A DNA stretch of 64,000 bases, from contig NC_088323.1 of NCBI RefSeq assembly GCF_910592395.1, positions 15,177,501-15,241,500 of the forward strand. The letters are read 5' to 3'. This DNA is from Lineus longissimus. Taxonomy: Eukaryota; Nemertea; Pilidiophora; Heteronemertea; Lineidae. Made by a program: the position numbers and the translations under genes. Positions 10,601 through 50,152 of this stretch are shown in pieces. The notes below the pieces were generated by a model that was not told the origin of the DNA, ran no database searches, and was given only the letters and a program-made list of their open reading frames with translations. Position 1 is the first letter of the stretch. Each line of letters starts with the position of its first letter.

Positions 10601-13600
10601 AAGTTTACAAACCCCTCTATTAAGGACATCCTCTCTATTAAGGACATCCTCTCTATTAAGGACATCCTCTCTATAAAGGACAACCCCTCTATTAAGGACA
10701 TCCTCTCTACACAAGTACTGCATCTGGTAGGAAGTGTGTCGTTTTCATTGAAATTGACCTCTAGAATGAGGACACCTCTCAATTAGGGACAGAACTTGTC
10801 AGTCCAAGGGTGTGCTTAATAGAGAGGTTCTACTGTAGATGAAAGATTTGGACTTTTTATATTTCAGCTAAGGGTAACTTCTATACCACTCTCAAACTAA
10901 AGTCCATGGAGAAACAGGTGACAAATCAGTTATTGACAAAACTGACCAACGACCAATTTTATCTTTTCATGCAAGAATCTTAAGCAATAATATAGAAATA
11001 TTTACAAATTCAGCATGCACTTGCAAGTTTCAGAATCTCCTCTGAAGTTGAAATGTGCTTTTCCTGCCAAGGCCACACCAATTTAATTGTTAGCTTAAAG
11101 GGTAACCCGTGTCAAATTTCACCATATAATGTTTTAGCTGTTTTTGACGAATGACTACGTCACTTTCTCATAAATTGGTAAGGTTTCCGAATCGAAATGC
11201 ATATTTTCTAGAAATTGATGGTTTAATCCCGCCCGGACGGCTCACTTCGATGCCGTTTTCGTCGATGACGTCACATCATGAACATTTTCGCGGTCGCGGT
11301 GGTTTACATTCAGCGATTTTATAATAAATCTAATCAAAAATGGAAAATTTGAGCTTTACATTTGTGATCAACAATTAAAAACGGATGTATTTCCGCAAAG
11401 TTGCAAATCACATCATAGTATCACTTTAACGGATGTTTTGTCATGAAAAGGTGGATGATGAGAGCAAAATGAAAATGAAAAGAGAAACTTATTCTGTAGT
11501 TATTTTGCTGGTGCATATTCAATAGTCCTCATGAAAACACCATATCAGGAAATATTATGGTTTCGAAAAGCAGAATTTAAGCCTCATTTTTCTTCATTTG
11601 CAGTTGCTTGTTGTAAAATTCCTACAGATCAGTTTGTCTTGTTGGTCCAAATCTGTGTTTTCTTTTTATATTCTGATGGATCACCAGATGCAAAAATAAT
11701 TTCATTTCAAGAATGCACAGTTTGGGGCAAGAGGGAGGAATGAACAAGAGGCCCAAGGGTCTGGCGCTCAGCTGGATGACCTAATAACATAGGACGGAGG
11801 GTGTAAAGTAGTAAATATCGGCTTTATACTACTGTTTGAAGGTCAAGAGAACACGTTATACCACTAAAATTTCCAATGCAGAGCTGCCAGCTGGATGAAA
11901 TATGATTGAACTAATCAGCCATGGTATGTAAATATTACAGGAGGCAACGGAAGATATCCCTAGTGGAGGAATGAAAAATCATTGGTTTTCAGATTTTTAT
12001 GCACGAGCGAAATCCGTTAAACTAACAATTAAATCGGTGTGGCCCAATGGGAAATTTAGTTTCATACCACAATGGTTTGAGTGCAGAATAGCAAAGAATT
12101 TACAATTTAACACGTTTCCACCATAAAGGAACAACAATCCCATGTCATGCTGCCACCAATGGCATAAAGATAACTTAAAGGAAGACTATAGGCAGGCACC
12201 AAGTAGGCTTGATTAATGCAAGTATCAATTCGTGTCTTGTACCCCCCCTCCTCAAGGGTACGACACCTTATCACCCTATAACGACATCTTAAGGCTGAAG
12301 CATCACCCTTTTTTCACCAATGCTACTTTTTCTTTCGTCAAGACATCACCATCAATAATATATCAGTTATCACCGTCATATTAAGTAACCGGACTAATTT
12401 TACTGGGTAAGGCTGTATGTTCGACAAGACATCGACACATTAGCATCCTTATTCTTTCCAGCTTCGCCAAATTTTCACTAAAGGAAAAATAAATACTACT
12501 CAAGCATCGGCAAAGATTAGTGGTGATAGCTTAACTACCCTTGAGGAGGGGGGGTACAAGAAACGAATTGACACTTGCATAAGTTACACAAAGTCATCAC
12601 TAGGTGTCTTAACTATCTCATAGTACAAGAGTATAGTTTGTTTATCATAGTGTCACCCCCAATGTAACGGCCAGCCAGGTTTAGCTTATGAGATAGTCTT
12701 TATTTCCAAACTCCTATCTCTTATAGCAGGTAACTGGCAAAAAGGCAGTTTGTACCCTATATTTAACTAGCGGGCGGCTAACCAACCGGCCGCATCGGAA
12801 AGATGTTACCAGCGGGCCTTGAACCTTGACCTTCCATTCACAAGGCAGATGCCTTAATGCAAGTATCAATTCGTTTCTTGTACCCCCCCTCCTCAAGGGT
12901 AGTTAAGCTATCACCACTAATCTTTGCCGATGCTTGAGTAGTGTTTATATTTCCTTCAGTGAAAATTTGGCGAAGCTGGAAAGAATAAGGATGCTAATGT
13001 GTCGATGTCTTGTCGAACATACAGCCTTACCCAGTAAAATTAGTCCGGTTACTTTATATGATGGTGACAACTGATATATTGTTAATGGTGATGTCTTGAC
13101 GAAAGAAAAAGTAGCCTTGGTGAAAAAAGGGTGATGCTTGAGCCTTAAGATGTCGTTATAGGGTGATAAGGTGTCGTACCCTTGAGGAGGGGGGGTACAA
13201 GACACAAATTGATACTTGCATAACCACTACGCCATCGGTACCCACAGGCATTCACGCTCGAGTACGATTATTTTCGTCACAAAATTAATCTCGACCCAGT
13301 TCCCTTATTTCTACATGTTAGCCATCTGGAGGCCACCAATTGCACCCAGCAATCTTCTGCCTATAGTCCCCCTTTAAGAAGCTGAAACATGGACACTAAG
13401 AGATCTTGTTTTTACAACACAAACTAAGCTAGCAAGAGAAGGGTTCTCACTGGCTATAAACTAAAATGAATCAATTTTTCAGCAAAGCTAATCTTTTACT
13501 CAAATTTTCCCCAGAAATTAAACACTAATTCCTAGAATTACTTTCATATACTTTGTAGCCAAATATCCAATCCATTCAAAAAACAAACTATTCCATATAA

Positions 13601-18289: not shown

Positions 18290-21200
18290 CAAAGTCGCAC
18301 ATCTCGGATGCCAATTTCCCTCACCTTTCAAACTGACATCATTCGGCGCCGCCAAATTCACATTATTCGGCGTCGGTGGTGGCGACGCCGTGCCAGACTT
18401 CGCCGACTTGTCCGATGTAACGGAAACACTCCGAGCTGGCGTCTTCTCCGAAACAGAACCACCTCCTTTGATCAGATTATCTAATCGTAAGAGGGCGGCC
18501 GTCGGTGTCGTCCCTGTGCCACTAGGAGTCGCCTCGCCATTCGGGACATTGTCGGTCGTCGTTTTAGCAGGCGGAGTTTTGACTGTTGGCGAGGCGGGCG
18601 CCACTTCTGCTGTTGTTGTTGTTGGCCTGTAGGAGAACGATATGTTCGAATGAGATTTTCAACTTTAATAAAATTTTTTCTAAGCTTATAACTCCGTACT
18701 ACAAGATTGAAACTTCAGCGCAAGTCCATCCTGAGCAGCATTCTGGGGGCTAATATCCTTATATTTGACCCCCCCCCCCCCCCCCCACTAGTCATAGTTT
18801 GATCACAATCACAATGGGCTTCCCCCCCCACTTTAGTCGCACAAATTTGCAATCCATGACAATACAACTACAGTAGCACCTCTCTATCAAGGACACCCTC
18901 AGGACAGACAGATGTTGTCCTTAACAGAGAGGTGTCCTGATAAGAGAGGTCAAAGTGAATGGAAACATTAAAAAAAGGGGCCAGAAAAAGTGCTCTTGAT
19001 AGAGAAAATGTCCTTAAAAGAGAGGGTGTCCTTAATAGAGAGGGTGGCCTGAAAAGACAGGGTGGCCTGAAAAGAGAGGGTGGCCTTAAAACAGAGGGTG
19101 GCCTTAAAAGAGAGGGTCGCCTTAAAAGAGAGGGTGTCCTTAATAGAGAGGATGTCCTTAATTGAGAGGGGCTCCTTAATAGAGAGGGGCTCCTTAATAG
19201 AGGGTGTCCTTAATAGAGGGTGTCCTTAATAGGGGGGCTGTCCTAAATAGAGAGGTGTCCGCTAAATGAGGTTCCACAGACATGTAATATTAGATTAGGG
19301 ACATACTTAGCCGCTTCTTGGGCTGCGGCCTGCTGTGCCTCTCGTCTCTTCTTAGCCTCTTCCTCAGCCTTCATCATGGCCGCCCGTTCCCGCTCAAGGC
19401 GTTCAAACGTCGGCCGGCGCGAGTAACGTTTACTCGCCTTGCGTTCAAAACGTACCGTGCGCCGCGCTGAGTTTAACGTCGTATTCTGGAATTCTGTTTT
19501 ACCACTGGAAGTAAGATGAGCAGAGAGGTTAAGGAGAGGTTCAGATCTGGACTCAAGAACGAAAACTTTTTTAGACAATTTTACGTTTGCAAAAATTAAG
19601 CGGCCGAAAATTTGGCGGGTTACAGGATGGGATTAGGAATTTTGCTCACCTGAACCTAAACCTGGATCCCATCCGTAAGAAGTCTTGTCGATTCCCTCGA
19701 GTCCGCACAGGGCCTTTCAACCGGAAGAATGCGTGATGTTCGACAGCACACTTCCACAGGTGTTTGCAAGCCTTCTTGTTCATGAGTCGAAAGACGAAAC
19801 TGTGCTCCTGCTCTTTACCCTAAAACAACGACAACAACGTTCGATGCGGCCAATAAGGAATCTGTCCACAGAGGTTTATCAAAAAAATTTAAAAATCCAA
19901 AATGTAACCTAGTTCCAATCCTTTTTACCAGCTCTGATTTTCAAAATACGGTTAAAATTTACAATCCCCGATCGGAAATGACGTAGTTTGATCGCATTCA
20001 ACTATAAATCCATTGAAACAGTGGTGCTTTGTTAGTCAACCGATGACCTTTTTTTGGGGTGTGATCGGGGATTGTAAACTCATTCCCAAAATACTTCTGG
20101 ACCAATAGGGATACTATCCACTAGTATGTGAATTTTGGATGAGAACTGCTTTAGAATTTTCAGCATATGAAGGGCTAAAAAAAATAAATACCTAGAACCT
20201 CCCGTTAAGGACACCCTAGGGACTGAAAAGTGCTGTCATTCACAGAGAGGTGTCCTGATAAGAGAGGTCAAATTGAATGGAAACCAATTTTGGACCAAAA
20301 CCAGTGTCCTTAGTAGAGTGGGCCATAATAGAGAGGTGTCCGCTAAGGGAGGTTCCACTGTAGATATTTTTGTAATCTCTATACCTGTTCGTCGTCTTCG
20401 ACAACCTGCAGGGTCAACTTCCGACTCTGGAAATCGAGTTTCGTAATCTTCGGCCTGAAATGGAGAATGGTCAAAATAGATCAACATACGTCACTAGAGA
20501 TCGCAGCACATCCCTCATGGAGGACGTCATAACCAGTTAGTAGGCACCAAAACAGATAGAGTTGTCTCGTTTAATAGAACCTCCATATTAAGGACACCCT
20601 TAGGAATGATATGAACCATACTGTCCTTAATAGAGAGGTGTCCTGATTAGAGAGGTCAAATTGAATGGAAACAACCACTATGGGCCCAAAACTAGTGTCA
20701 TTGATAGAGAGGTGTCCTTATTAGAGAGGTTCGAATGTACAGTAGAACCTCTCTGACTGACAAGTGCTGTCCTTAATAGAGAGATGTCCTGATTAGAGAG
20801 GTCAAAGTGAATGTTAACAACCAATTTTCAATTTCAATTTGGATCAAACATGGTGTCCTTGATAGAGAGGTTGTCCTTAATAGAGAGGTCCGACAGTACT
20901 TCTAATTATTAGTAACATTTTCCAGTTAATTATACAAAATGTCACAGTCACAGGACACAGAAAGGGTTTTTCTGATCTTAATCATGACAGAGACGGAGAT
21001 AAACTTGTTTCATCCGACTCAAGGCCCAAAATAGGATTTTCTGACGTCCGATTTTGAGGAAAAGGTTCCGAGTATTTATTTTAAAGCAGTGATTACAAGT
21101 ACAGTGGAACCTCCCTTAGCGGACACCTCTCTATCAATGACAACCTCTCTATCAAGGACACTATGTTTGATCCAAATTGAAATTGAAAATTGGTTGTTAA

Positions 21201-24200
21201 CATTCACTTTGACCTCTCTAATCAGGACACCTCTCTATTAAGGACAGCACTTGTCAGTCCCAAGGGTGTCCTTAATAGAGAGATTCTACTGTAGATATTC
21301 TGACGGCTGTCACTCAAAGGTGAACTGAGCAGAACCAAGGGTACATTAGGTGGAAGTTTCAGTCATCAACCCTTAGATTGTGGGGTAGGGCACTCAATGT
21401 TTTCCCCGACTGTTAAAGGACTCCGTTCGTAATTACTGGTGGTCCAGTTAAATAGAAATACACTAAAACACAATGCCCTAGTGCAGTTATTGTGAGTACA
21501 AATTTGTTTAAACTTGGTATTCATAGTATTTGTATATCAGTCTACACAACGGCAATGTTGGAATTTATATTTTGTACGTATTTCTGCAATTGGACATTTT
21601 TGAATTCAATTACAAATTCAACATTTTAAACGAACGGCGTACGCCTTTAAGAACAATCGCCAACCCTATTGTAAATCACAAAATATTTACGCCAATTAAT
21701 TTCCATGACCAAAAAAAAATGTTACACTCTATGTTTTTTGATGGATTCGGAATTTCTTGTTTTTCCAATACAGAAATATTTTTTCACGTTTTAAAATTTT
21801 TCACCAATCTTGGTCAAGAAATCCGCTAAAATGAACCGTCAAGCAAATTAGGCGTGTTAAAGTACCAACCAAACTCCACAAGGCATCGAACCTCACCAGA
21901 AAAATAATCCAATTTTTTGCGCGCCCTCAAATACGAGAATACCAGTTGGCGTCAATCCTAAGTGATACTCCTGACCGTCGCGGCCCATGACGATGTGCAT
22001 ATCAACACCATACATCTCCAACCACTTCGCCTTATTGAGATAGTTCATTTCAGCCTGTGCCGGAGTCTGATTTTTACATTTCTTGAAATGTTCGATCGCA
22101 GCGAGTTCCATGGTGTCTGTTTGCTGGGGGAGGAAACGGAATTCGGATACCAGTGCGGGCGTGTGCATGGTTTCATCATAATCTCCTAGTTCAGCTGAAA
22201 TAGAGACAACAGTCGTATTAACCTCATGAATCCCATGGCTTGAAAACCCCAGGATCCTAGGGTTGGGAAATTCGGTCTGACTTCACGATGTATAGCGCCC
22301 GAATACAACCGCCAAAGTCCAGTACCGAGGCGCCATCTACCAGGCATGCTCTAACTGACCCTACTGTACATCAAACACGCTAAAACAAGCAATAAAATAG
22401 CGTCCCAGCTCCAGGGAATAAAAATATCACCGAGACCGACCTGTCGGTCGTTGGGAAAAAATGTTACTTCAAAATGACCGACTGCTCGGTCACCGGGATT
22501 CAAGAGGTTAAAGTTAAAGTTTTGGGTTTCGAGTCTGAAATCAACAACGATATAGGTTATCATTCGACTTTAAAATTTTACCACCCGTCTGTCCTGAAAT
22601 CATTCAGACCTCAGATTAGCCACTTAACCAGCGCTGTAATCTGAGACTTCCTGACCGGTACCCATTTATACACCTGGGTGCAGAGGCAAATGAGACAAAG
22701 GGACCTGCCTACAGTCTCACGCCAATAGAGGGATTGAACCCAGGAGCTCTTGACCGCTAGTCGCGAGTCCCAGCCACTACACCACAGTAGCTCAGTTATA
22801 TTAAGTTATACTGCGAACTGCAACTTAAATTGCATGCAATGATAGTTGCTCCTTTGTGGAACTCATAGGCTCACATATCACTTGGCTCTGAGGCTCCCAA
22901 GTTCATCAACAATGTCCTTGCTATATGTTACCTTTGAGTATATCTACTTACATTGTAATGCTAGAGCGGAGAGCTCGACAGCTGTTTCAAAAGGACTTGG
23001 CAGCTGTACTTGTAGGCTGTGTACTTACATTGTAATGCTAGAGCGGAGAGCTCGACAGCTGTTTCAAAAGGACTTGGCAGCTGTACTTGTAGGCTGTGTA
23101 CTTACATTGTAATGCTAGAGCGGAGAGCTCGACAGCTGTTTCAAAAGGACTTGGTAGCTGTACTTGTAGGCTTTGTACTTACATTGTAATGCTAGAGCGG
23201 AGAGCTCGACAGCTGTTTCAAAAGGACTTGGTAGCTGTACTTGTAGGCTGTGTAATTACATTGTAATGCTAGAGCGGAGAGCTTGACAGCTGTTTCAAAA
23301 GGACTTGGCAGCTGTACTTGTAGGCTTTGTACTTACATTGTAATGCTAGAGCGGAGAGCTCAATAGCTGTTTCAAAAGGACTTGGCAGCTGTACTTGTAG
23401 GCTGTGTACTTACATTGTAATGCTAGAGCGGAGAGCTCGACAGCTGTTTCAAAAGGACTTGGTAGCTGTACTTGTAGGCTTTGTACTTACATTGTAATGC
23501 TAGAGCGGAGAGCTTGACAGCTGTTTCAAAAGGACTTGGCAGCTGTACTTGTAGGCTTTGTACTTACATTGTAATGCTAGAGCGGAGAGCTCAATAGCTG
23601 TTTCAAAAGGACTTGGCAGCTGTACTTGTAGGCTTTGTACTTACATTGTAATGCTAGAGCGGAGAGCTCAACAGCTGTTTCAAAAGGACTTGGCAGCTGT
23701 ACTTGTAGGCTTTGTACTTACATTGTAATGCTAGAGCGGAGAGCTCAACAGCTGTTTCAAAAGGACTTGTTAGCTGTACTTGTAGGCTGTGTACTTACAT
23801 TGTAATGTTAGAGCGTAGAGCTCGACAGCTGTTTCAAAAGGACTTGGTAGCTGTACTTGTAGGCTTTGTACTTACATTGTAATGCTAGAGTGGAGAGCTC
23901 GACAGCTGTTTCAAAAGGACTTGGTAGCTGTACTTGTAGGCTTTGTACTTACATTGTAATGCTAGAGCGGAGAGCTCGACAGCTGTTTCAAAAGGACTTG
24001 GTAGCTGTACTTGTAGGCTTTGTACTTACATTGTAATGCTAGAGTGGAGAGCTCGACAGCTGTTTCAAAAGGACTTGGTAGCTGTACTTGTAGGCTTTGT
24101 ACTTACATTGTAATGCTAGAGCGGAGAGCTCAACAGCTGTTTCAAAAGGACTTGGCAGCCGTCCTAGTAGGCTGTGTACTTACATTGTAATGCTAGAGTG

Positions 24201-27200
24201 GAGAGCTCGACAGCTGTTTCAAATGGACTTGGAAGCTTTACTTGTAGGCTTTGTACTTACATTGTAATGCTAGAGTGGAGAGCTCAACAGCTGTTTCAAA
24301 AGGACTTGCTAGCTGTACTTGTAGGCTTCGTACTTACATTGTAATGCTAGAGCGGAGAGCTCGACAGCTGTTTCAAAAGGACTTGGCAGCCGTCCTTGTA
24401 GGATGTCTATTTTAAGCTGCAGGAAAAATTGATACCTGAAAGACAAATAAAAAAAATTATCACCAACTTGATCTCAGCCTTGAGGTAGCATTGTCATGGA
24501 GGACCCAGTTGCTCAACTGTCGTTACGAACTTTGTGTCGATACCCCCAACTTCTTTGCTGGTGCCTAAAAGTATCCATAGTGCCCTCTGGTGGGCACCCA
24601 TAGCAGCCTGATGATGTGATGAGGATTACGTGTTGAGATGGGGACAAGGGGGATGTTCTGCCATTGAGAACAGCCCAGATTGGTGCAGATCATGCAATTT
24701 GGGTTTTGTCCAACAGCTATGTCAGGAAATCATTTCTCTTTGGAAAAAGCATTTCCACTTTTACAAAGCATTTTCCACCGAGAAAATAGCATTTTCCACT
24801 TAGAAAATAGCATTTTCCACTTAGAAAATAGCATTTTTCACTTAGAAAATAGCATTTTCTGCTTAGAAAATAGCATTTCCAACTAAGAAAATAGCATTTT
24901 CCGCTTAGAAAATAGCATTTTGTGCTAAGATAATAGCATTTACCACTTAGAAATTAGCATTTTTTCGCCTCAAATAGCATTTTCCACTCAGGAAGTAGCA
25001 TATTTCACGAATAAAATGAAAATTTTCACTTGAACACATTAAACACATTGAACACATCAAAAAAGCTTGAATGCCATGTCTGACAGTAGAACTACATGTA
25101 TGTCCCGAGTGAGATCAAAATACTCACATTGAAAGACATCTTTCTTCTTTTTTACTATTAATCATTCTAAAGTGCCACAAGAAATCGTCTGCACAATACA
25201 CAATGTATAGCAAGACATTTTATTTGTTGGAGCAAATATTATCAAAATCCAGTAAGTAATGATGATTGTCACAGTGTTTGTCTGAGGACTGATAAACCTG
25301 TAGGGGGTCTTGTAACGGTATGCCTAGGTATGCCTGAGCGGTATCATGCCTCGGATGTTAACGTCATACCTACCAGGACTTTTTACAGACAGTTTACAAG
25401 ATTGAGCCACACGACTGGGGTCCCTTCAAGGAAAACCTGTTCTCAGAGTAGGCCTACAGTTGACTCTCCCTCAGCAGACACCTCCCTATTAAGGACAATC
25501 TCTCTATTGAAGACACTAAATTTGATCTCAAATTGGTTGTTTTGATTCAATTTGACCTTTCTAATCAAGACACCTCTCTATAAGGACAACCTCTCTATTG
25601 AAGACACTAAATTTGATCCCAAATTGGTTGTTTCCATTCAATTTGACCTCTCTAATCAAGACACCTCTCTATAAGGACAGCACCTGCCAGGCTCGAGGGT
25701 GTCCTTAATAGAGAGGGTTCAATGAATCCAAAACATAACTGCACTGTGTGCTCCAAAACAGGGACAAAACAGCCCTACATGGCCCCGTTGTTCAAAATAA
25801 GTTTAATCACTAATGCTAGTGTCAACTTAGCCTGGCGATATCTCCTTTGAACTGTTAACCCTTAGCCTTATCGCCAAATTACATTAGCCAAAGTTAGTGA
25901 CACAACTTGTTTCTAACAACGGGCTAAATTCTTGCTAAAGTGCAAAACATCAAAAAAGACCGAAAGACAAGGGGACCGAACTTTTCCACTCAAGAGAAAA
26001 CCGTATTGGCTGACTTGGTGCTAGGTGAGATTGGCGTGCTTCGCACCAGGTTCAGCCAGGACGTAACAAAGAGGATTAAAGATGCAAAGTGGGTCGAGAT
26101 TGCAGCTACCATCTCTGTAATGGGTGTTTGTGCAAGAAGCCCCAAAGCATGTCGTGAAAAATTGAACACCATGCTCAGCGAGGAAGGCCTACTCAAAGCA
26201 GATGAGGCACCAGTCCGGAACCGGAGGGGAGGACGGCTCTTCATTGATCCTGTTCTAGAGCTGATCATCAGTAAATTTGAAAAGGATGCCAGCTAACGCC
26301 AAGTTAAAGATAACGTTAGATTTAACTTAGGGTTTTAGGTGTTAACTTTAACTAGCAGACCACTTACACACAAATAATGACATTGTGCTGATGTAGTGAT
26401 GACATCACAGATCTGTGTGTACTTTTGGGTGGAGGGAATTTTAAGGTAGTTGAGAAGAGTTGTTCATGGAGAACAGATTGAGTCAGGAGGACATATTATC
26501 TAGAGGATAAACTATACCAGTACATGACAAAGAATGATCACAAGCAAGAGACCTGGGCCGGCCCATCATATGGAGTGACTGTGTGAGTGGAATACAACCA
26601 ATGTCAGTAAATAATGACAAACTTTTCATTAGGTAAGTTAAATCTAACGTTAAAGAGAACGCTAATATTGTTTGAACAACTCAAAATAAAACTTGATGTT
26701 ATCTTAACGCCAAGTTAGGAATTTTAACGTTAAGTTTTCTTTAAAAATGTATAATTCTTTTGAACAAACGGGCTCTGGTATGTAAGCTTCATCCCGTTGG
26801 ACTGTGAGACTGAGAGCAACTTTACTTTTGACAACCTACCGTGTTAATTCTTCATGTAAACTGTTTGGCTCGGATGAATAAAATTTGACTCGAAATCGAA
26901 ACGTATACGGCGGACCGACTGAAAAGAGAAAAGTTGAAGAAGAAGATAAATGGACTGTTTGAAAACCACAAAACAATTTGTGATCCACCACGGCAAAATG
27001 AGTCGCACATCGCACAGAAGATGAGCCTAAAATGACACCAGGAGATAATGGAAGAAATTGATAAACTTATATTTCACAAAAGGCAGATTATAGTGAAATG
27101 AACAACCAGTCCGTCTCAACATGTCAAGCTCGGAACGACATGCGACTCATTTTACCATGGCGGGTCACATTTGATTGACCAGAAGAAAATACTGTAAATT

Positions 27201-48641: not shown

Positions 48642-50152
48642 ACGACGGACGCCACGGTATGGGATAAGCTCACCTCTGCTAAGAGGTGAGCTAAAAATGA
48701 CTGACATCATGTATGGTCTACACTCAATACAGTGGGGTGGGGTCATTGAAAATATTGTCCTGTGGTACTTATGTGGGACATTTTACAAACACAGGACCAG
48801 GAACTTGCGGGTCATGCTAATTCCCGACCTACCCCGACTTTTCCCGACATTTCCCGACTTGCGGAAAATGCTGCCAAAATATAGTGTATTAATCATCAGA
48901 ATATTTATATCTGTACTGTTTACATACATATACAGCACGTCTGTTAATTTCAATACTTTTGAACGATGCTAAGTTGAGCAAATCAACTCCAATAATTAAT
49001 TTATGCTGGGTTCAGACAAGGCCATATGCATGTACAGTTTACAAGAAGCGACAACCACAACTAACCAAGATTACCGACCTGCAGAAAAATTGCGGTCGGT
49101 TGGGTAGATGTAACTTGCTTTGCTCAACTTAGCATCGTTCAAAAGTCTTGAAATTAACAGACGTGCTGTATATGTATGTAAACAGTACAAATATAAATAT
49201 TCTGATGATTAATACACTATATTTTGGCAGCATTTTCCGCAAGTCGGGAAAAGTCGGGGTAGGTCGGGAATTAGCATGACCGGGAACTTGCTGGTCCAAA
49301 ACACATGCAAGACACAGATTTTTCGTCATAGCTCAAAATAAATATGCATTAAGCGGAATGTTACAACCTAAGTTTTTGACCTCGTTCATCTACCTTAATG
49401 CTATCTCGGCAACTTTGTACTAGTCGGGGATCTGTTTAGAGACACCAAGAAACGCACAACATAGGCCATATAAAACGCAGCATGGTTGCACATCTTGTCA
49501 TCGAGTCCTTATATATTCGTTGTGCCAATATTCAAGATTGTTTCGGCCAGGGACAGCCCCCACCAAGTGAAGCGATGTTATTGTTAACATTGAAAGTGAT
49601 AAAATGGCAAGTTGCCTTGGCCGGGATTTGAACCAGAGACCTTTGGATTGCCGGTCAACAACTAACATTACATTGAGTTATCGAGGTTTGTGGATGTGAC
49701 TGCGAGTGTCAGTGCGACTTCGACATTTGAATGACACGACGGAACTTCCTGCAATGCAGTTGCTGTTGTCGACAAAAAGGGACGACAAGCGGTAAAGGAT
49801 CAGATTTGCACAGGCCATGACTAAATAGGTCCTAGGCCTACAACACCAATTTTCGGTTCGTCTTTCTGACTTTCACTTTCAGAAGGTGACAAAATCAATC
49901 AGGTTTTTGACGACAAAGTTCGGACAAAGTTCCCTAGCTAAACATTCATAACAGCCTCTTCCAGCAAACTACGCAACTTACACTGATGTGCACATGGAGA
50001 TCTGTCCCATCCAAGAGTTGGACGCTGCAAGGGATACATCCCTTAGGGGGCTTCGATGGTTTGGTATCCTGACCCTCCACACCTTGTTGTTGTCGATAAC
50101 GCTTGTCCCCACGGCCAGACTTTCGACGACTCAAAAATCGAAAAAAAGACAT
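1537..50152 (-). CDS. EPB41L5: FERM-domain protein of the EPB41L5/EPB41L4B (yurt) family; multi-exon gene, 3' end outside the window
   Basis: Minus-strand gene assembled from exons at 50152..49982, 44457..44353, 43836..43794, 24435..24338, 22194..21897, 20454..20385, 19819..19650, 19504..19307, 18626..18325, 17781..17581, 15863..15779, 13800..13687, 10487..10425, 5714..5679 (tentative) and 1624..1537. Every junction has AG/GT borders and codon phases match across all adjacent pairs. The protein has a FERM domain (from about residue 42 to the GSRFRFSGKTEF segment), a FERM-adjacent segment with [12 protein letters not shown], then a Ser/Thr/Pro-rich acidic tail. Segments such as [31 protein letters not shown] and [15 protein letters not shown] are characteristic of this family. 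Family members are membrane-cortex adaptors that bind Crumbs-type proteins and regulate epithelial polarity. One FERM exon between 43794 and 24435 was not found, and the stop codon lies left of the window. Introns are loaded with transposons and minisatellites. Invertebrates usually have one co-ortholog of EPB41L5 and EPB41L4B, so the symbol is a family label. Confidence 0.93.
1718..2260 (+). repeat. GGTAGGGTGG low-copy repeat, locus 1
   Basis: Shares long segments with 27395-28060: GGGTTCCCCACA, CAACACAAGGTAGGGTGG, CTAGAGCAAGGTAGGGTGG and GGGGCAAGCACCGGGATTAG. It consists of tandem degenerate units. Nature unknown. Confidence 0.75.
2837..2998. mobile_element. Pogo-like MITE
   Basis: AGAACCTCTCTATTAAGGAC at the left and GGAAGGCTCCACTCTA at the right, with the TCAAATTGAATGG-type core. 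Confidence 0.75.
3144..3657. repeat. 23-bp minisatellite with E-box motifs
   Basis: About 22 copies of GTAGAATCATTGATGGGCAC plus GTG. By my count 15 units carry the palindrome CACGTG, 6 carry CCTGTG and 1 carries CACATG; the rest of the unit is nearly invariant. Confidence 0.95.
3658..4390. other. Intronic sequence, no feature recognised
   Basis: No ORF with family resemblance, no splice-compatible exon in the expected phase and no inverted repeat seen. Confidence 0.4.
4391..5007. mobile_element. Candidate MITE with CCCTTAAAGCGC ends
   Basis: TTAGCCCTTAAAGCGCC at the left and AGCGCTTTAAGGGTTAG at the right are inverted, both flanked by TTAG. A 27-bp segment with GCGACGATCGTCGAC is duplicated near the left end. 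Possibly piggyBac-like with a variant target. Confidence 0.55.
5420..5600. mobile_element. Pogo-like MITE
   Basis: ACAGTAGAACCTCTCTATAA at the left, GAGTTCCACTGTA at the right, with TA-type ends. Confidence 0.8.
5679..5714 (-). CDS. EPB41L5: Candidate 36-bp microexon of the FERM gene
   Basis: Flanked by acceptor ATTTTTCAG|G and donor CG|GTAACT. At 36 bp (1+33+2) it is frame-neutral between exons 14 and 16 and would insert [12 protein letters not shown]. It could be an optional cassette or a chance pair of splice signals next to the 33-bp array. Confidence 0.35.
5765..6292. repeat. 33-bp minisatellite
   Basis: About 16 units of AAGGCACACACACCAAGAAC followed by TGGATTTCGTTGG. Shorter variant units (CCAATAATGGAGTTCGTTGG) and CA-tract length changes shift the frame. 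Because the unit is 33 bp without stops, long ORFs appear in several frames on both strands; these are not genes. Confidence 0.96.
6570..9345 (+). mobile_element. 5'-truncated non-LTR (CR1/Jockey group) retrotransposon
   Basis: Contains the long ORF below, a short 3'UTR and an (AATA)n-like tail near 9328-9345, typical of CR1/Jockey-group LINEs. The endonuclease N-terminus is missing, so the copy is 5' truncated around 6570-6595. It lies in the large intron between the candidate exon at 5679 and exon 14 at 10487 of the FERM gene, on the opposite strand. No target-site duplication was identified. Confidence 0.85.
6594..9163 (+). CDS. Endonuclease (partial) / reverse transcriptase ORF of the non-LTR element
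   Basis: The frame is open from just after a TGA at 6590 to TAG at 9163, with about 846 codons from the first GTG. In order: partial APE-type endonuclease with [12 protein letters not shown] and DSDHFPV (~residues 35-110), a basic linker, then reverse transcriptase with [33 protein letters not shown] and the catalytic FADD. The C-terminal region has [11 protein letters not shown] and [14 protein letters not shown], usual for the CR1/Jockey group. No internal stop or frameshift is present, so it inserted recently. The catalytic N-terminus of the endonuclease is absent, so it should not be autonomous. Confidence 0.9.
9383..9938 (-). pseudogene. CR1/L2-like non-LTR fragment, C-terminal RT and 3'UTR
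   Basis: The minus strand reads [16 protein letters not shown] then [20 protein letters not shown], the conserved region after the RT domain of CR1/L2 elements. The 3'UTR includes GCGCTATATAAGCATC and an AT repeat. The catalytic RT is missing. Its 5' side abuts the TTAA of a 343-bp MITE at 9939. Confidence 0.8.
9939..10281. mobile_element. 343-bp TTAA-flanked MITE, copy 1
   Basis: TIRs AGCGAACTGGAACCGCC and GGCGGTTCCAGTTCGCT sit just inside TTAA on each side, consistent with a piggyBac-like TTAA duplication. It is the same length as the copies at 14769 and 17866. Confidence 0.82.
10425..10487 (-). CDS. EPB41L5: FERM gene exon 14
   Basis: 63 bp between acceptor TTTTCCAG|A and donor GG|GTAAGT. 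In the phase set by exon 13 (AG|A) it reads [20 protein letters not shown] with no stop and ends in GG, which pairs with the G starting either downstream exon. It is short and serine-rich with no named domain. Confidence 0.68.
10606..10837. mobile_element. Pogo-like MITE with internal tandem expansion
   Basis: The left arm repeats CTCTCTATTAAGGACATC about four times. The right end is GAGAGGTTCTACTGTA. It lies 119 bp upstream of FERM exon 14. Confidence 0.8.
11095..11429. mobile_element. Possible TTAA-flanked MITE
   Basis: TTAAAGGGTAACCCGTG at the left and CATAGTATCACTTTAA at the right, both with TTAA, but the inverted repeat is weak. The interior has GACGTCA motifs. Confidence 0.3.
11430..12174. 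other. Intronic sequence, no feature recognised
   Basis: AT-rich. A 70-codon plus-strand ORF at 11531 has no recognisable features. Confidence 0.4.
12217..12579 (+). mobile_element. 363-bp TAA-flanked MITE, copy A
   Basis: Terminal inverted repeat ~45 bp beginning TGCAAGTATCAATTCG and containing a C7 run, with TAA on each side (12214-12216, 12580-12582). A 3-bp TWA-type duplication suggests PIF/Harbinger. It is inserted in the ACTATAGGCAG MITE. Confidence 0.82.
12680..13245 (-). mobile_element. tRNA-derived SINE, split by MITE copy B
   Basis: On the minus strand an A-box-like TGGCGTAGTGG is followed (after excising the MITE) by AAGGCATCTGCC and a B-box-like GGTTCAAGG. Ends are approximate. 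The left end near 12680 is inferred. Confidence 0.55.
12858..13220 (-). mobile_element. 363-bp TAA-flanked MITE, copy B (inside a SINE)
   Basis: Reverse orientation relative to copy A. Removing it and one TAA restores GATGCCT-TAA-CCACTACG, the tRNA-like head of a SINE. This fixes the element ends and the 3-bp duplication. Confidence 0.85.
13687..13800 (-). CDS. EPB41L5: FERM gene exon 13
   Basis: 114 bp, acceptor CATGGTAG|A and donor AAAAG|GTACTG. Phase from exon 12 (AG|A) gives R then [20 protein letters not shown] and [17 protein letters not shown], an acidic low-complexity tail. The acceptor has a weak pyrimidine tract. Phase agreement on both sides supports it. Confidence 0.72.
13975..14150. 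mobile_element. Candidate palindromic MITE (GCGATT family)
   Basis: Inverted ends around GAGCGATTTAAAA and ATCGAAATCGCTTGTCTGC, with many TCGCA/TGCGA motifs. The same style of element is at 61394-61600. Confidence 0.4.
14395..14538. repeat. ~21-bp tandem repeat
   Basis: About seven copies of AAATTTCAGGATAGGAGTAC with GTGATA variants in the first units. Confidence 0.9.
14769..15111. mobile_element. 343-bp TTAA-flanked MITE, copy 2
   Basis: Near-identical to copies 1 and 3 with the same terminal inverted repeat and TTAA flanks. It lies in the intron between FERM exons 12 and 13. Confidence 0.82.
15779..15863 (-). CDS. EPB41L5: FERM gene exon 12
   Basis: 85 bp, acceptor TATTTTCAG|CG and donor AATAG|GTACGT. 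Read in the phase set by exon 11 it gives [20 protein letters not shown] then SEEESESN. It is short and acidic/serine-rich. Assignment rests on splice sites and phase, not on a recognisable domain. Confidence 0.75.
15940..16121. mobile_element. Pogo-like MITE
   Basis: ACAGTAGAACCTCTCTATAA to GGAGGTTCCGCTGTA, about 75 bp upstream of FERM exon 12 on the minus strand. Confidence 0.85.
16642..16966. mobile_element. TTAA-flanked MITE with CCCTTCAGGAC ends
   Basis: TTAACCCTTCAGGAC at the left and GTCCTGAAAGGGTTAA at the right. CCCT-type ends next to TTAA are typical of piggyBac-like elements. Confidence 0.7.
17581..17781 (-). CDS. EPB41L5: FERM gene exon 11
   Basis: 201 bp, acceptor GTTTTCAG|AA and donor AAAAG|GTGGGT. 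It encodes [40 protein letters not shown] and [16 protein letters not shown]. The split codon G|AA with exon 10 is in phase. The hydrophobic [15 protein letters not shown] stretch may be a conserved binding motif. Confidence 0.85.
17866..18208. mobile_element. 343-bp TTAA-flanked MITE, copy 3
   Basis: TIR variant AGGGAACTGGAACCGCC. The right TTAA runs directly into a (GAT)n tract. It fills most of the intron between FERM exons 10 and 11. Confidence 0.82.
18206..18291. repeat. (GAT)n microsatellite
   Basis: About 28 ATG/GAT triplets with one interruption (GATAATGAT), between MITE copy 3 and the FERM exon 10 donor. Translated it gives meaningless poly-Asp or poly-Ser. Confidence 0.95.
18325..18626 (-). 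CDS. EPB41L5: FERM gene exon 10 (Ser/Thr/Pro-rich tail)
   Basis: 302 bp, acceptor CCTACAG|GCC and donor AAAG|GTGAGG. It encodes [40 protein letters not shown] and [15 protein letters not shown]. The composition looks disordered, and I cannot name a domain. Phases match exons 9 and 11. A (GAT)n tract and a TTAA MITE follow the donor within 40 and 120 bp. Confidence 0.85.
18765..18787. repeat. Poly(C) tract
   Basis: A run of about 20 C after TTTGA, in the intron between FERM exons 9 and 10. Similar shorter C runs occur at 15604 and 43696. Confidence 0.9.
18869..19277. mobile_element. Pogo-like MITE with a long internal tandem expansion
   Basis: Starts TACAGTAGCACCTCTCTA and ends AATGAGGTTCCACAGA. 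The AGAGGGTGTCCTTAAT segment of the right arm is repeated about a dozen times (19005-19245) with drifting GTGGCCTGAAAAGAGAGG units. Its right end is 29 bp from the FERM exon 9 donor. Confidence 0.85.
19307..19504 (-). CDS. EPB41L5: FERM gene exon 9 (FERM-adjacent domain)
   Basis: 198 bp, acceptor TTCCAG|TGG and donor CTAA|GTATGT. It encodes [20 protein letters not shown], then [20 protein letters not shown], then a Glu/Ala/Arg/Lys-rich probable coiled coil ([18 protein letters not shown]). The SARR..FERK.SKRYSRR pattern is the FERM-adjacent segment of this family. An expanded pogo-like MITE begins 29 bp past the donor. Confidence 0.95.
19650..19819 (-). CDS. EPB41L5: FERM gene exon 8
   Basis: 170 bp, acceptor GTTTTAG|GGT and donor TTCAG|GTGAGC. 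It encodes [38 protein letters not shown] and the end of the FERM C lobe, [12 protein letters not shown]. The Ser codon AG|T is completed by exon 9. Confidence 0.96.
20190..20362. mobile_element. Pogo-like MITE next to FERM exon 7
   Basis: TAGAACCTCCCGTTAAGG to GGAGGTTCCACTGTA. Its right end is 22 bp from the exon 7 donor. Confidence 0.85.
20385..20454 (-). CDS. EPB41L5: FERM gene exon 7
   Basis: 70 bp, acceptor TTTCAG|G and donor AACAG|GTATAG. It encodes [15 protein letters not shown] then QVVEDDEQ (F3 lobe) and ends in phase 0. A pogo-like MITE ends at 20362, only 22 bp inside the downstream intron. Confidence 0.95.
20571..20739. mobile_element. Pogo-like MITE, first of an abutting pair
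   Basis: TTAATAGAACCTCCATATTA to GAGAGGTTCGAATGTA. The final TA is shared with the next copy. Confidence 0.8.
20738..20898. mobile_element. Pogo-like MITE, second of an abutting pair
   Basis: TACAGTAGAACCTCTCTGAC (left arm shortened) to GAGAGGTCCGACAGTA. It begins at the terminal TA of the preceding copy. Confidence 0.8.
21100..21293. mobile_element. Pogo-like MITE
   Basis: TACAGTGGAACCTCCCTTAG to GAGAGATTCTACTGTA with full TIRs. Inverted relative to the copies at 20190-20898. Confidence 0.85.
21413..21650. mobile_element. TTAA-flanked MITE (CGTTCG family)
   Basis: TTAAAGGACTCCGTTCGTAA at the left and AACGGCGTACGCCTTTAA at the right. Shares its body with 32856-33088 (TTACTGGTGGT, ACTTGGTATTC, GTCTACACAA). 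Confidence 0.75.
21897..22194 (-). CDS. EPB41L5: FERM gene exon 6
   Basis: 298 bp, acceptor TATTTCAG|CT and donor TTCTG|GTGAGG. It encodes [20 protein letters not shown], the central [17 protein letters not shown] motif, and [22 protein letters not shown]. This spans the end of FERM lobe F2 and the start of F3. The split Trp codon TG|G joins exon 7. Confidence 0.96.
22640..22795 (-). mobile_element. tRNA-derived SINE fragment
   Basis: The minus strand carries TGGTGTAGTGGCTGGGACTC (A box) and GGGTTCAATCC (B box), followed by a body ending near ACACCTGGGTGCAGAGGCA on the plus strand. Found in the intron between FERM exons 5 and 6. Confidence 0.55.
22880..24405 (-). repeat. 77-bp tandem array derived from FERM exon 5 and its splice donor
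   Basis: CTTACATTGTAATG recurs at 22947, 23024, 23101 and on to 24333 with exact 77-bp spacing (19 positions). On the minus strand each unit holds the coding end of exon 5 (peptide [17 protein letters not shown]) followed by AAT|GTAAGTAC. The 19th position is the real exon end. One unit (23255) has GTAATT instead of GTAAGT. The 5' half of the exon is not in the unit. Confidence 0.97.
24338..24435 (-). CDS. EPB41L5: FERM gene exon 5 (source of the 77-bp array)
   Basis: 98 bp, phase 2 in and phase 1 out: acceptor TTTCAG|G, donor CAAT|GTAAGT. It encodes [20 protein letters not shown] then [12 protein letters not shown], matching the family's YLFFLQLRQDI..CPFDTAVELAALCLQ segment. The split codon T|CT joins it to SELGDYD of the next exon. 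The last ~63 bp plus the donor are copied 18 more times in the following intron. Only use of this first donor keeps the frame open. Confidence 0.93.
24436..24760. other. Intron just upstream of FERM exon 5
   Basis: Pyrimidine tract and acceptor of exon 5 at the left end. Nothing else recognised. Confidence 0.4.
24762..25010. repeat. ~21-bp tandem repeat
   Basis: About eleven drifting copies of TTAGAAAATAGCATTTTCCAC. Confidence 0.9.
25454..25722. mobile_element. Pogo-like MITE with internal duplication
   Basis: TACAGTTGACTCTCCCTCAG to AATAGAGAGGGTTCAATGAA. A ~90-bp middle segment (CTCTATTGAAGACACTAAAT..) is present twice. Confidence 0.8.
25782..26774 (+). mobile_element. DNA transposon fragment carrying a Myb/SANT-like ORF
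   Basis: GCCCCGTTGTTCAAAA at the left and TTTTGAACAAACGGGC at the right are inverted. A third copy of the motif (TTTCTAACAACGGGC) lies at 25910-25925, just before the ORF. No DDE transposase is present. Element ends and superfamily are inferred. Confidence 0.5.
25940..26296 (+). CDS. Myb/SANT-like DNA-binding protein, transposon-associated
   Basis: 118-codon ORF. Residues ~14-80 fit the Myb/SANT-like domain found in transposon-derived proteins of the NAIF1/MSANTD type: [20 protein letters not shown], then [20 protein letters not shown], then a predicted recognition helix around [10 protein letters not shown] basic NRRGG segment and a hydrophobic C-terminal helix follow. PIF/Harbinger elements encode such a DNA-binding partner alongside the transposase. 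It could be a decayed transposon gene or a short intact one; the frame has no stops. It lies antisense in the large FERM intron. Confidence 0.6.
   Translation: MQNIKKDRKTRGPNFSTQEKTVLADLVLGEIGVLRTRFSQDVTKRIKDAKWVEIAATISVMGVCARSPKACREKLNTMLSEEGLLKADEAPVRNRRGGRLFIDPVLELIISKFEKDAS
26975..27175. mobile_element. Palindromic MITE (GTGACCCG family), copy 1
   Basis: GTGATCCACCACGGCAAAAT and ATTTTACCATGGCGGGTCAC form a long TIR. The interior (AGATTATAGTGAAATGAACA, GTCCGTCTCAACATG) matches 30045-30237 in inverse. Confidence 0.7.
27395..28060 (+). repeat. GGTAGGGTGG low-copy repeat, locus 2 (~220-240-bp tandem units)
   Basis: The unit start CCTTGATAATCAAGAAG recurs at 27443, 27683 and 27903. Each unit contains CAAGGTAGGGTGGCCAGCAA and GGCCCAACTGGATGGGGGCA. 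The same sequence occurs at 1718-2260. Confidence 0.85.
28302..28732. mobile_element. Candidate MITE
   Basis: CTTTTTATACGAGGACAG at the left and CCTCCTCGTGTAAAAGC at the right are inverted. The inner sequence repeats CTGGCCTCGAG/GGCTCGAGG motifs. Confidence 0.5.
28740..29500. other. Intronic sequence, no feature recognised
   Basis: No recognisable exon on the minus strand and no repeat structure. Searched specifically for the missing FERM exon. Confidence 0.4.
29503..29700. mobile_element. Pogo-like MITE
   Basis: TACAGTAGAACCTGCCTTAG to GAAGTTCTACTGTA, with a duplicated CTCTATTAAGGACACC. Confidence 0.85.
30045..30237. mobile_element. Palindromic MITE (GTGACCCG family), copy 2
   Basis: TGTGACCAGTCACAGCAAAA and TTTTCGCTGTGACGGGTCAC form the TIR. 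Opposite orientation to copy 1. Confidence 0.7.
30631..30812. mobile_element. Pogo-like MITE
   Basis: TACAGTGGAACCTCCTTTAG to AGAAGTTTTATTGTGTA (slightly diverged right end). Confidence 0.85.
30820..31779. other. Intronic sequence, no feature recognised
   Basis: AT-rich. A 64-codon plus ORF at 30914 shows no family features. Confidence 0.4.
31780..32515. repeat. 57-bp minisatellite
   Basis: About 13 units of AAGGGGTTGTAACTGTTGGA, TGGAGCCCTACAGTCTCGG, TGAGAAGGGGCCCACTGC. The 57-bp period is divisible by three, which explains long ORFs on both strands. Confidence 0.96.
32856..33088. mobile_element. TTAA-flanked MITE (CGTTCG family), 3' end lost
   Basis: TTAAAGGGGTACGCCGTTCG at the left with the same body as 21413-21650. 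The right end is interrupted by a pogo-like MITE at 33091 and no right TIR is seen after it. Confidence 0.7.
33091..33255. mobile_element. Pogo-like MITE
   Basis: TACAGTGGAACCTCCCTTAG to AGAGAGGTTCTACTGTA, inserted at the right side of the CGTTCG-family MITE. Confidence 0.85.
33357..34633. repeat. 91-bp minisatellite
   Basis: About 14 units of 91-92 bp beginning GGATGGATTCCTCCACTCCA and including CCTCGGCCGGGGTCACCGGA and GACAACCAATTA. A one-base change in a G run gives the 92-bp units. Confidence 0.96.
34640..35215. other. Intronic sequence, no feature recognised
   Basis: Two loosely similar segments (GGCATCAGGCATGAGGTACG, GACCAGGCATGAGCTTTGG) suggest an old duplication. No gene. Confidence 0.4.
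35220..35990. repeat. ~193-bp tandem repeat with a palindrome per unit
   Basis: About four units. TGTATAGCACTG and CAGTGCTATACA form a perfect 12-bp inverted repeat around an 8-bp loop in the units at 35390, 35580 and 35773. Confidence 0.9.
36052..36265. mobile_element. TTAA-flanked MITE (ACTATAGGCAG family), intact copy
   Basis: TTAAAGGGAGACTATAGGCA at the left and TGCCTATATTGTCCCTTTAA at the right form the TIR. TTAA occurs at both ends. No coding capacity. Confidence 0.7.
36788..37756. repeat. ~101-bp tandem repeat
   Basis: About ten units beginning GTGAGTTTCTGAATGGAGCC and ending TGTACTCATAAACAGAAGAG. Confidence 0.95.
37760..38415. other. Intronic sequence, no feature recognised
   Basis: No ORF, TIR or splice-compatible FERM exon seen. 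Confidence 0.4.
38418..39030. repeat. 37-bp minisatellite
   Basis: About 16 units of GACTTGACTTTGATGCATGT then GTGTGCCTTGCTTTCAA. Central units are most alike and edge units are diverged. Confidence 0.95.
39398..39572. mobile_element. Pogo-like MITE, right end lost
   Basis: TACAGTACAACCTCCCTTCA at the left; core and GGGTGTCCTTAATAGA present, but the right TIR is missing. Confidence 0.75.
39730..40144 (-). pseudogene. CR1-like non-LTR fragment, C-terminus, frameshifted
   Basis: One minus frame reads [15 protein letters not shown] +/-1 shift then gives [20 protein letters not shown] and [13 protein letters not shown], the usual C-terminus of CR1-like RT proteins. The RT core is absent. Confidence 0.8.
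40485..41215. mobile_element. Pogo-like MITE with triplicated core, interrupted by a SINE
   Basis: Starts TACAGTGGAACCTCCCTCAG. The segment CTAGTTTTGGCCCCAACTTG through GACGCCTCTCTATTAAGG recurs about every 100 bp. A SINE (40782-41180) splits the third core, after which CTCTCTAATCAGAACACC resumes. The right TIR is lost. Confidence 0.85.
40782..41180 (+). mobile_element. tRNA-derived SINE with (GAA)n tail and 14-bp target duplication
   Basis: The head has an A box TGGCCTAGTGG and a B box GGTTCGATCCC. The body is ~300 bp and ends in GAAGAAGAAGAAGAA. The flanking 14-bp repeat GACCTCTCTAATCA at 40768-40781 and 41181-41194 is a clean target-site duplication. The target is itself a pogo-like MITE. 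Confidence 0.92.
41500..41658. mobile_element. Pogo-like MITE, diverged
   Basis: AGTAGAACCTCTCTATCAAG to AGAGAGGGTTTCGATTCA. Confidence 0.7.
42071..42194. repeat. Perfect 37-bp inverted repeat with 50-bp loop
   Basis: Arm 42071-42107 (AATGGGTGATATGAATAAAG..) is exactly complementary to 42158-42194. Transcribed in the FERM pre-mRNA it would form a mismatch-free 37-bp stem. Confidence 0.95.
42376..42812. mobile_element. TTAA-flanked MITE (GCCCGTAGCACAC family)
   Basis: TTAAGCCCGTAGCACACTAG at the left and GTGTGCTGCGGGCTTAA at the right. The TIR is about 35 bp with CCGCCAACTTCGGCG inside. The interior is rich in GGCGGCGA and GACGCC motifs. Confidence 0.8.
43110..43291. mobile_element. Pogo-like MITE
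   Basis: TACAGTGGAACCTCCCTTAG to GAGAGGTTCTACTATG. Confidence 0.85.
43415..43764. mobile_element. MITE (AGGCCTSTCAATTAC family), copy 1
   Basis: CAGGCCTCTCAATTAC at the left and GTAATTGAGAGGCCTG at the right form a perfect 16-bp TIR. Contains a C16 run. Its end is 30 bp from the FERM exon 3 donor. Confidence 0.75.
43794..43836 (-). CDS. EPB41L5: FERM gene exon 3
   Basis: 43 bp with acceptor TTTTTCAG|CAC and donor AAAA|GTAAGT. It encodes [14 protein letters not shown] plus one base of the next codon, the family's HWLDPTK-IKKQ segment. The next exon must therefore begin with two bases; it was not located. A 350-bp MITE ends 30 bp downstream of the donor. Confidence 0.9.
44205..44335 (-). mobile_element. 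5'-truncated copy of the same SINE
   Basis: The reverse complement matches the 3' third of the SINE at 41040-41170 (CCAATGAACCCAGTTGGTGC, CTCATCCCGCCTTGGAGGAG). It lacks the tRNA head. It lies 20 bp downstream of the FERM exon 2 donor. Confidence 0.75.
44353..44457 (-). CDS. EPB41L5: FERM gene exon 2
   Basis: 105 bp, 35 codons, phase 0 on both sides, acceptor CAG|AAA and donor AAT|GTAAGT. It encodes [16 protein letters not shown] and [16 protein letters not shown], the classic FERM F1-lobe segment. A 5'-truncated SINE copy lies just downstream in the intron (44205-44335). Confidence 0.93.
44470..45480. other. Intronic sequence between FERM exons 1 and 2, no feature recognised
   Basis: Two overlapping plus ORFs at 44956 and 45026 have no recognisable family. 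Confidence 0.4.
45483..45664. mobile_element. Pogo-like MITE
   Basis: TACAGTCTAACCTCTCTTAG to AGAGAGGTTCTACTGTA. Confidence 0.85.
45665..45748 (-). mobile_element. tRNA-like SINE head fragment
   Basis: The minus strand reads TGATGCAATGGATAAACG and GGGTTCAAGGC, degenerate A and B boxes at tRNA spacing, directly after a pogo-like MITE. Confidence 0.4.
46165..46522. mobile_element. MITE (AGGCCTSTCAATTAC family), copy 2
   Basis: CAGGCCTGTCAATTACATGA at the left and CGTAATTGAAAGGCCTG at the right, with CCTACACC/GGTGTAG continuing the inverted repeat. Contains a T22 run. Confidence 0.72.
46525..47670. other. Intronic sequence, no feature recognised
   Basis: A 76-codon plus ORF at 46584 has no recognisable domain. 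Motifs such as TAGGCCTAT and ACATGTAC are common but unassigned. Confidence 0.4.
47675..48692 (+). repeat. ~305-bp tandem unit repeat ending in (ACG)n and a hairpin
   Basis: The phrase CCATTTGACCTCTGTGACCT recurs at about 47690, 48000 and 48303, each followed by AGGTCAAAT. After the third unit come an (ACG)n tract (48583-48655) and a perfect 11-bp hairpin, AGCTCACCTCT/AGAGGTGAGCT (48667-48692), then CTAAAAATGA. This looks like the 3' end of a dispersed element; I recall similar ends in other marine invertebrates. The class is not established. Confidence 0.65.
48791..49304. mobile_element. Long inverted repeat (fold-back element)
   Basis: Arms 48791-48981 and 49114-49304 are reverse complements with few differences, around a ~130-bp spacer. 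Outer motif GGACCAG, then GGTCATGCTAATTCCCGACC. One arm has an extra TTTCCCGACA repeat. Confidence 0.85.
49590..49680 (-). mobile_element. tRNA-like SINE fragment
   Basis: The minus strand includes CTCTGGTTCAAATCCCGGCC, a good B box, with a degenerate A box about 45 bp upstream. No full tRNA fold is evident. Confidence 0.4.
49982..50152 (-). CDS. EPB41L5: FERM gene exon 1 (start codon)
   Basis: 57 codons from ATG at 50152 to the donor AGT|GTAAGT, ending in phase 0. The protein begins [15 protein letters not shown] and enters the first FERM lobe with [16 protein letters not shown]. An in-frame TAG lies seven codons upstream, which supports this ATG; a TTG start five codons earlier would only add four residues. 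The basic, Ser-Phe-Phe N-terminus resembles vertebrate EPB41L5. Confidence 0.9.

What the first reader, a model, noticed from the sequence alone, without database searches (positions are those of the whole stretch)
22880..24435. A coding exon and its 5' splice site have become a 19-unit, 77-bp satellite
The array following FERM exon 5 is built from the exon's own last ~63 bp plus the first bases of the intron. Each unit therefore encodes [17 protein letters not shown] followed by GTAAGT. Spacing is exactly 77 bp over all 18 steps, so the array is young or kept uniform by gene conversion. The pre-mRNA meets 19 near-identical donors in a row (one reads GTAATT). Only the first gives the correct phase, and 77 is not divisible by three, so use of later donors reads into stops. 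Each unit also has ACAG ahead of the coding part and could behave as a cryptic 52-nt exon. A conserved FERM exon turned into a tandem splice-donor array is unusual and could affect splicing fidelity or expression.
Basis: partly seen in the sequence, partly recalled or inferred. Interest (0 to 1): 0.9.

Follow-up and report, generated by a model that had tools for sequence, protein, structure and literature searches.

The report
Exon-end minisatellite repeating a splice donor
In what looks like a ribbon-worm cell-polarity gene, the end of one coding exon and the start of its intron have been copied 19 times in a row, giving 19 near-equal cutting signals of which only the first can make a normal message; the same kind of repeat is already known in lancelets and in a human gene.

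Summary
On the minus strand, the last 65 bp of a FERM exon (24402-24338) plus 12 bp of its intron form a 77-bp minisatellite, 18.9 copies, no indels, ending at 22945. All 19 copies carry a donor: 18 GTAAGT, one GTAATT. A 53-bp unit pattern (up to 3 mismatches) hits the genome only here. Contig sizes match the nemertean Lineus longissimus. The gene resembles EPB41L5/yurt, with this as fifth exon (recalled query). Of 1111 enumerated splice choices, only donor 1 to exon 6 avoids an early stop. Human minigenes with equal donors under exon definition use the upstream one, so the other 18 are probably decoys. Units 2-19 show no coding constraint; the "cryptic 52-nt exon" has poor acceptors. The layout is known: amphioxus "mirages" and the human CBS 31-bp VNTR. 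Two further arrays holding their own acceptor were found among 79 exon loci, without genome-wide excess. New member of a known kind; any effect of array length on expression is untested.

The parts
24338..24435 (-). Coding exon 5 of the EPB41L5/yurt-like gene; its last 65 bp (24402-24338) are unit 1 of the array
   Evidence: FERM_M profile hits, tblastn with recalled human EPB41L5, open frame [32 protein letters not shown]
24336..24337 (-). Exon-proximal donor GT (AAT|GTAAGT), the only donor that avoids an early stop
22945..24402 (-). 77-bp x 18.9 minisatellite: 65 bp exon end + 12 bp intron start, 19 donor copies
23254..23259 (-). Unit 15 donor variant GTAATT
22195..24337 (-). Intron 5 (2143 bp from donor 1; 757 bp from donor 19)
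   Evidence: sequence; lengths by arithmetic
21897..22194 (-). Exon 6 (SELGDYDE...KIGLFF) with acceptor TTTCAG
26840..26918 (-). Exon 4 ([26 protein letters not shown])
49982..50152 (-). Probable first coding exon ([11 protein letters not shown]...), edges approximate
   Evidence: weak tblastn hit, E 0.014, sequence
19650..19819 (-). Exon 8 ([12 protein letters not shown]...)

Best explanation
It is a splice-site minisatellite ('mirage' type). A tandem duplication with breakpoints 65 bp inside exon 5 and about 12 bp inside intron 5 of an EPB41L5/yurt-like gene was amplified to 19 units by unequal exchange or slippage, including a 3-unit block. The first, exon-attached unit stays coding; units 2-19 are non-coding passengers in the intron. 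The spliceosome most likely recognises exon 5 by exon definition, pairing the upstream acceptor with the nearest of the 19 near-equal donors (98-nt exon), so the decoys are mostly ignored. Pre-mRNAs cut at any other donor or at array acceptors carry an early stop and would be removed. Shown: anatomy, uniqueness at the stringency searched, stop consequences, lack of coding constraint in units 2-19. Inferred: origin steps, donor choice, transcript removal.
For: Ungapped alignment of exon end and units; TRF; the unit pattern hits the genome 19 times, all in this array. tblastn places the exon as fifth of nine EPB41L5-like hits in order, two of the nine weak (E 0.014 and 0.095), flanking exons open. 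The array consensus differs from the exon by replacing G and R (LQGRLPS to LQVQLPS); the recalled human protein keeps the G, so the exon state is probably ancestral. Variable columns in the exonic part of units 2-19 fall 6/4/3 on codon positions 1/2/3, so no third-position bias. 1 of 1111 enumerated isoforms lacks an early stop: donor 1 to exon 6. In five human minigenes with two identical donors and 365-nt flanking introns the upstream donor was used exclusively; here every competing intron is longer (757-2143 bp downstream, about 2.4 kb upstream). Amphioxus mirages are reported not to disturb splicing.
Against: No RNA evidence. The exon-definition rule is from human cells, and human events taken together, without matching donor strength, favour the downstream donor in about 60%. 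In human CBS, more repeats of the same design go with lower enzyme activity, so decoys may not be fully ignored. No relative or second haplotype was available to show the unduplicated state. The sample of other loci shows no excess of arrays at splice sites.
Confidence: 0.85

Rival explanations
1. Length-dependent expression tuner: a fraction of splicing goes to decoy donors, the products are destroyed, and array length sets the protein level, in the way the human CBS 31-bp VNTR is associated with activity.
For: Same architecture as CBS, where more repeats go with lower activity; every decoy product enumerated carries an early stop; 17 of the 18 decoy donors equal the real one by a generic recalled matrix.
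Against: Exon-definition data predict near-exclusive use of donor 1; amphioxus RT-PCR suggested regular splicing; donor hexamers in units 2-19 are not significantly better kept than the rest (1 of 108 against 41 of 1278 changes, Fisher p 0.25), so no sign of selection for them.
Confidence: 0.1
2. Units act as alternative 52-nt exons (the reader's cryptic exon idea; a step to new exons and introns as proposed for amphioxus globins).
For: 16 of 18 downstream units have ACAG 52 nt before a donor; the globin paper proposes this route.
Against: No pyrimidine tract, scores -2.8 to -7.4; 25 nt between a donor and the next unit's acceptor; stop after five residues past the junction.
Confidence: 0.03
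3. Assembly artefact.
For: Tandem arrays are classic assembly trouble; the reads could not be inspected.
Against: The matching published assembly used PacBio HiFi reads from a 12-20 kb shear; the array is 1.46 kb and its units differ at 18 columns.
Confidence: 0.02

Closest known systems
Human CBS 31-bp VNTR, c.1444_1467+7(16_21)
   Same: By its name the unit is 24 bases at the exon end + first 7 intron bases; 16-21 copies of constant length with single-base variants; it lies at the exon 13/intron 13 boundary.
   Different: Shorter unit, unrelated gene and phylum. Population length variation and an activity association are reported there, none tested here. The review calls the CBS repeat non-coding, which the allele name does not suggest; the original paper (Lievers 2001) was not seen.
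Amphioxus 'mirage' minisatellites (Adh3, globins BflGb6/BflGb9, PGBD5, TnC)
   [quoted passage not shown] concerted evolution inside the cluster.
   Different: BflGb6 has 3 or 6 units of 150-160 bp at an acceptor, BflGb9 one duplicate at a donor; this one has 19 units of 77 bp at a donor, in a nemertean. Length and somatic instability are reported for Adh3, untested here.
Human CBS 844ins68
   Same: A 68-bp duplicated intron 7/exon 8 junction gives two competing sites and the more distal one is strongly favoured, so the normal exon is kept. I read this as exon-proximal acceptor choice.

Membership tests
Mirage minisatellite (as described in PMC3087553) | Tandem repeat unit spans an exon-intron boundary | tested here: met
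   65 bp exon + 12 bp intron, 19 units
Mirage minisatellite (as described in PMC3087553) | Units carry splice signals | tested here: met
   18 GTAAGT and 1 GTAATT in 19 units
Mirage minisatellite (as described in PMC3087553) | Regular splicing undisturbed | not testable with these tools
   No RNA data; only the canonical isoform lacks an early stop
Mirage minisatellite (as described in PMC3087553) | Copy-number instability between haplotypes | not testable with these tools
   An alternate haplotype, GCA_910592375.1, is published; I had no access to it
Mirage minisatellite (as described in PMC3087553) | Internal homogenisation (concerted evolution) | tested here: met
   Shared variants in a 3-unit block, units 11-13 and 14-16; other lags show no clear trend
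EPB41L5/yurt subfamily of FERM proteins | FERM domain and best match to EPB41L5 over several exons | tested here: inconclusive
Functional VNTR of the CBS type | Array length correlates with gene output | not testable with these tools
   Needs individuals and RNA

The most novel reading that the evidence does not exclude
In a minisatellite-rich animal genome, tandem repeats regularly capture splice sites. Exon 5 of this EPB41L5/yurt-like gene would then be a natural 19-donor competition experiment whose length varies between individuals and sets gene output through decay of mis-spliced RNA, with the array also able to convert its changes (G to V, R to Q) back into the coding exon.
Probability: 0.08. 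Interest if true: 0.6.

Novelty: new member of a known kind. Interest (0 to 1): 0.38.

Why it matters
It extends splice-site minisatellites to a nemertean, as far as my paper searches show (each a full-text search of an open-licence library; only listed papers seen). It has more units than the amphioxus globin cases that I read (up to 6), about as many as human CBS (16-21). It offers a natural test of the exon-definition proximity rule with many near-equal donors, and a candidate for length-dependent expression. It also warns gene predictors: 17 of the 18 false donors score the same as the real one.

Tried and rejected
Genome-wide excess of donor arrays: triple-GTAAGT spacing patterns gave 1203 hits against 2040 for the reversed control; AGGTAAGT gave 102 against 155. 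No excess. A same-composition control (GAGTAAGT) was asked nine times and never answered.

Targeting of splice sites by arrays: in 79 exon loci, 36 arrays cover 4.6% of the non-coding bases; 3 arrays reach to within 5 bp of a predicted splice site, 4 if L020, whose array ends 9 bp short, is counted; about 7 of 158 edges would be covered at random (my arithmetic). No excess. The 79 are all 29 FERM_M matches, the 30 best of 140 kinase matches and 20 further kinase matches picked by hand, mostly short ones, one because it showed a doubled exon. Some loci overlap, match edges are not always splice sites, and some kinase hits may be intronless.

Own-boundary test: splice boundary against own array, compared with 31-33 arrays of other loci: L010 37 vs at most 18, L079 47 vs 16, L024 (this array) 46 vs 14; L020 21 vs 19 (unclear); L019 and L030 no better than others. 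For L020 and L024 I set the boundary by hand in the script.

RNA structure hiding donors: z -0.86 and -0.87, nothing special. Other arrays in the window: none of the eight other mapped exons is overlapped by an array; one array lies within 50 bp of exon 9 and is made of the TCCTTA-type motif. Splice scores use a generic matrix recalled from memory; the exon 6 donor was mis-picked and is not used.

Papers: the amphioxus Adh3 paper is not held. Passages of an earthworm metallothionein paper (PMC12783039) mention intron repeats and fourth-exon duplications absent from transcripts; passages of the amphioxus huntingtin paper (PMC2206037) did not bear on this. only listed general amphioxus papers.

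Full report
What is there. On the minus strand, exon 24435-24338 runs into a tandem array. TRF gives 22945-24402, period 77, 18.9 copies, 95% matches, no indels, score 2615; the best score in 50 shuffles of 22880-24435 was 36. Units laid out from 24402 show that unit 1 is the last 65 bp of the exon plus 12 intron bases, and that all 19 units stay in register. Every unit has a donor, 18 GTAAGT and one GTAATT at unit 15. A whole-genome search with a 53-bp piece of the unit (up to 3 mismatches) found 19 hits, all in this array, and none for the reversed control.

Organism and gene. The window lies at C16:15177501-15241500 of a 391,118,348-bp genome in 30 contigs. The contig lengths seen (e.g. C2 29.19, C3 29.08, C6 21.66, C11 19.19, C14 16.76, C15 16.29, C16 16.53 Mb) agree to within 0.01 Mb with Table 2 of the Lineus longissimus genome note (PMC8593623, part 1 of 2 of the text read); that note counts 32 scaffolds, the copy here 30 contigs. 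The name is an inference from sizes. The exon, translated with exon 6, hits Pfam FERM_M; its best solved relatives are Band 4.1-like 3 and 4.1R. tblastn with a human EPB41L5 sequence recalled from memory gives nine exon hits in order on the minus strand between 50152 and about 19312, this one the fifth; two are weak (E 0.014 and 0.095), and exon 6 is 68% identical over 109 residues. I call it an EPB41L5/yurt-like gene.

Consequences of each donor. Reading from exon 5 past donor 1 meets TAG at the 42nd codon, inside unit 2, so donors 2-19 all give truncated frames, including those that restore phase. I enumerated donor k, an optional array acceptor j with final donor l, and exon 6: of 1111 combinations only donor 1 straight to exon 6 has no early stop. 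On a generic recalled matrix the array's TACAG acceptors score -2.8 to -4.0 and unit 3's TAAAG -7.4, against +2.9 to +9.6 for seven acceptors of the gene; unit 4 has no AG there.

Evolution of the array. Within units 2-19 the variable columns of the exonic part fall on codon positions 1, 2, 3 as 6, 4, 3, so these copies do not look held to a protein. The array consensus differs from the exon at two sites that change G to V and R to Q; the recalled human protein has G there, which suggests that the exon is ancestral. Unit 4 keeps the exon state at both sites, so the exon unit itself may have been copied in a 3-unit exchange (inference). Units 11-13 and 14-16 are near copies: 0, 2 and 1 differences. 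Donor hexamers are not significantly more conserved than the rest, 1 of 108 against 41 of 1278 (Fisher p 0.25).

How it most likely works. With two identical donors in an exon flanked by introns long enough for exon definition, five human minigenes used only the upstream donor (PMC9225289, abstract and first part of Results read). Here donor 1 gives a 98-nt exon and all competing introns are 757 bp or longer, so donor 1 should win. The same paper reports that human events taken together, without matching strength, lean to the downstream donor (about 60%), so this is a prediction and not a result. The rival is a length-dependent tuner through decay of mis-spliced RNA.

What it is like. [quoted passage not shown] PMC3902484 (passages and one section read) adds PGBD5 and cites troponin C. 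The closest match in layout is the human CBS VNTR c.1444_1467+7(16_21): by its name 24 exonic and 7 intronic bases, 16-21 copies (PMC2630376, passages); a review states that more repeats go with lower CBS activity (PMC5188458, passage). The finding is therefore a new member of a known kind. A search for nemertea + tandem repeats + splice sites + intron returned no paper; the mirage reports that I opened were on amphioxus. One search listed 15 of 30 papers and 10 of 38, and most listed papers were not opened.

Is it general in this genome? Among 79 exon loci (29 of 29 FERM matches; 30 best plus 20 hand-picked of 140 kinase matches) only this array enters a coding match by more than 3 bp; L079 overlaps by 3 bp. 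Two other arrays clearly contain their own acceptor: L010 (40-bp unit, FERM exon) and L079 (kinase exon, last copy is the acceptor TTCTCTATTTTACAG), by own-versus-other scores of 37 against 18 and 47 against 16. L020 is unclear; L019 and L030, also close to exons, are not built from their splice sites. Arrays cover 4.6% of the non-coding bases in these loci, so about 7 of 158 edges would be hit by chance against 3-4 seen, and donor-containing arrays are not in excess over reversed controls. The simplest reading is a minisatellite-rich genome (15.7% of this window by my filter) in which some arrays happen to start across splice sites and survive where the exon-attached copy still works.

Verdict. 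The cryptic-exon idea is not supported, the effect on expression is open, and the kind is already known in lancelets and humans.

Noticed in passing
L079:1822-2010 (G000:C4:2875800-2879100, minus strand gene): Minisatellite at a kinase exon acceptor: units repeat a version of TTCTCTATTTTACAG|AACAACTGTCC and the last copy is the apparent real acceptor.
   Followed up: partly
L010:1180-1496 (G000:C5:6928705-6931956): 40-bp array ending 4 bp before a FERM exon; units repeat the acceptor's pyrimidine tract and AG.
   Followed up: partly
L068:1629-1814 and 1851-2042 (G000:C1:7147500-7151200): Two diverged copies of one kinase exon (MKK-like by recall) separated by a gap of about 48 bp that looks like a tiny intron; a candidate pair of mutually exclusive exons.
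   Followed up: no
window:36790-37752: 101-bp x 9.5 array with GTGAGT or GTAAGT at the same place in the units looked at (+ strand); no exon was tied to it.
   Followed up: no
window:6593-9163 (+): 856-aa open frame with endonuclease-reverse transcriptase and RVT_1 domains: probably a non-LTR retrotransposon.
   Followed up: no
window:25928-26296 (+): Myb/SANT-like DNA-binding open frame inside intron 4 of the gene, opposite strand; perhaps part of a DNA transposon.
   Followed up: no
window, many sites (e.g. 10615-10709, 19009-19260, 40506-40790): A short motif (TGTCCTTAATAGAGAGG and its complement, with variants) recurs in small tandem clusters across the window.
   Followed up: no
window:51685-52641 (+): 318-aa open frame that resembles TMEM177 by my recall; no Pfam hit at E 0.001. 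TMEM177 and EPB41L5 are near each other in human, also by recall.
   Followed up: no
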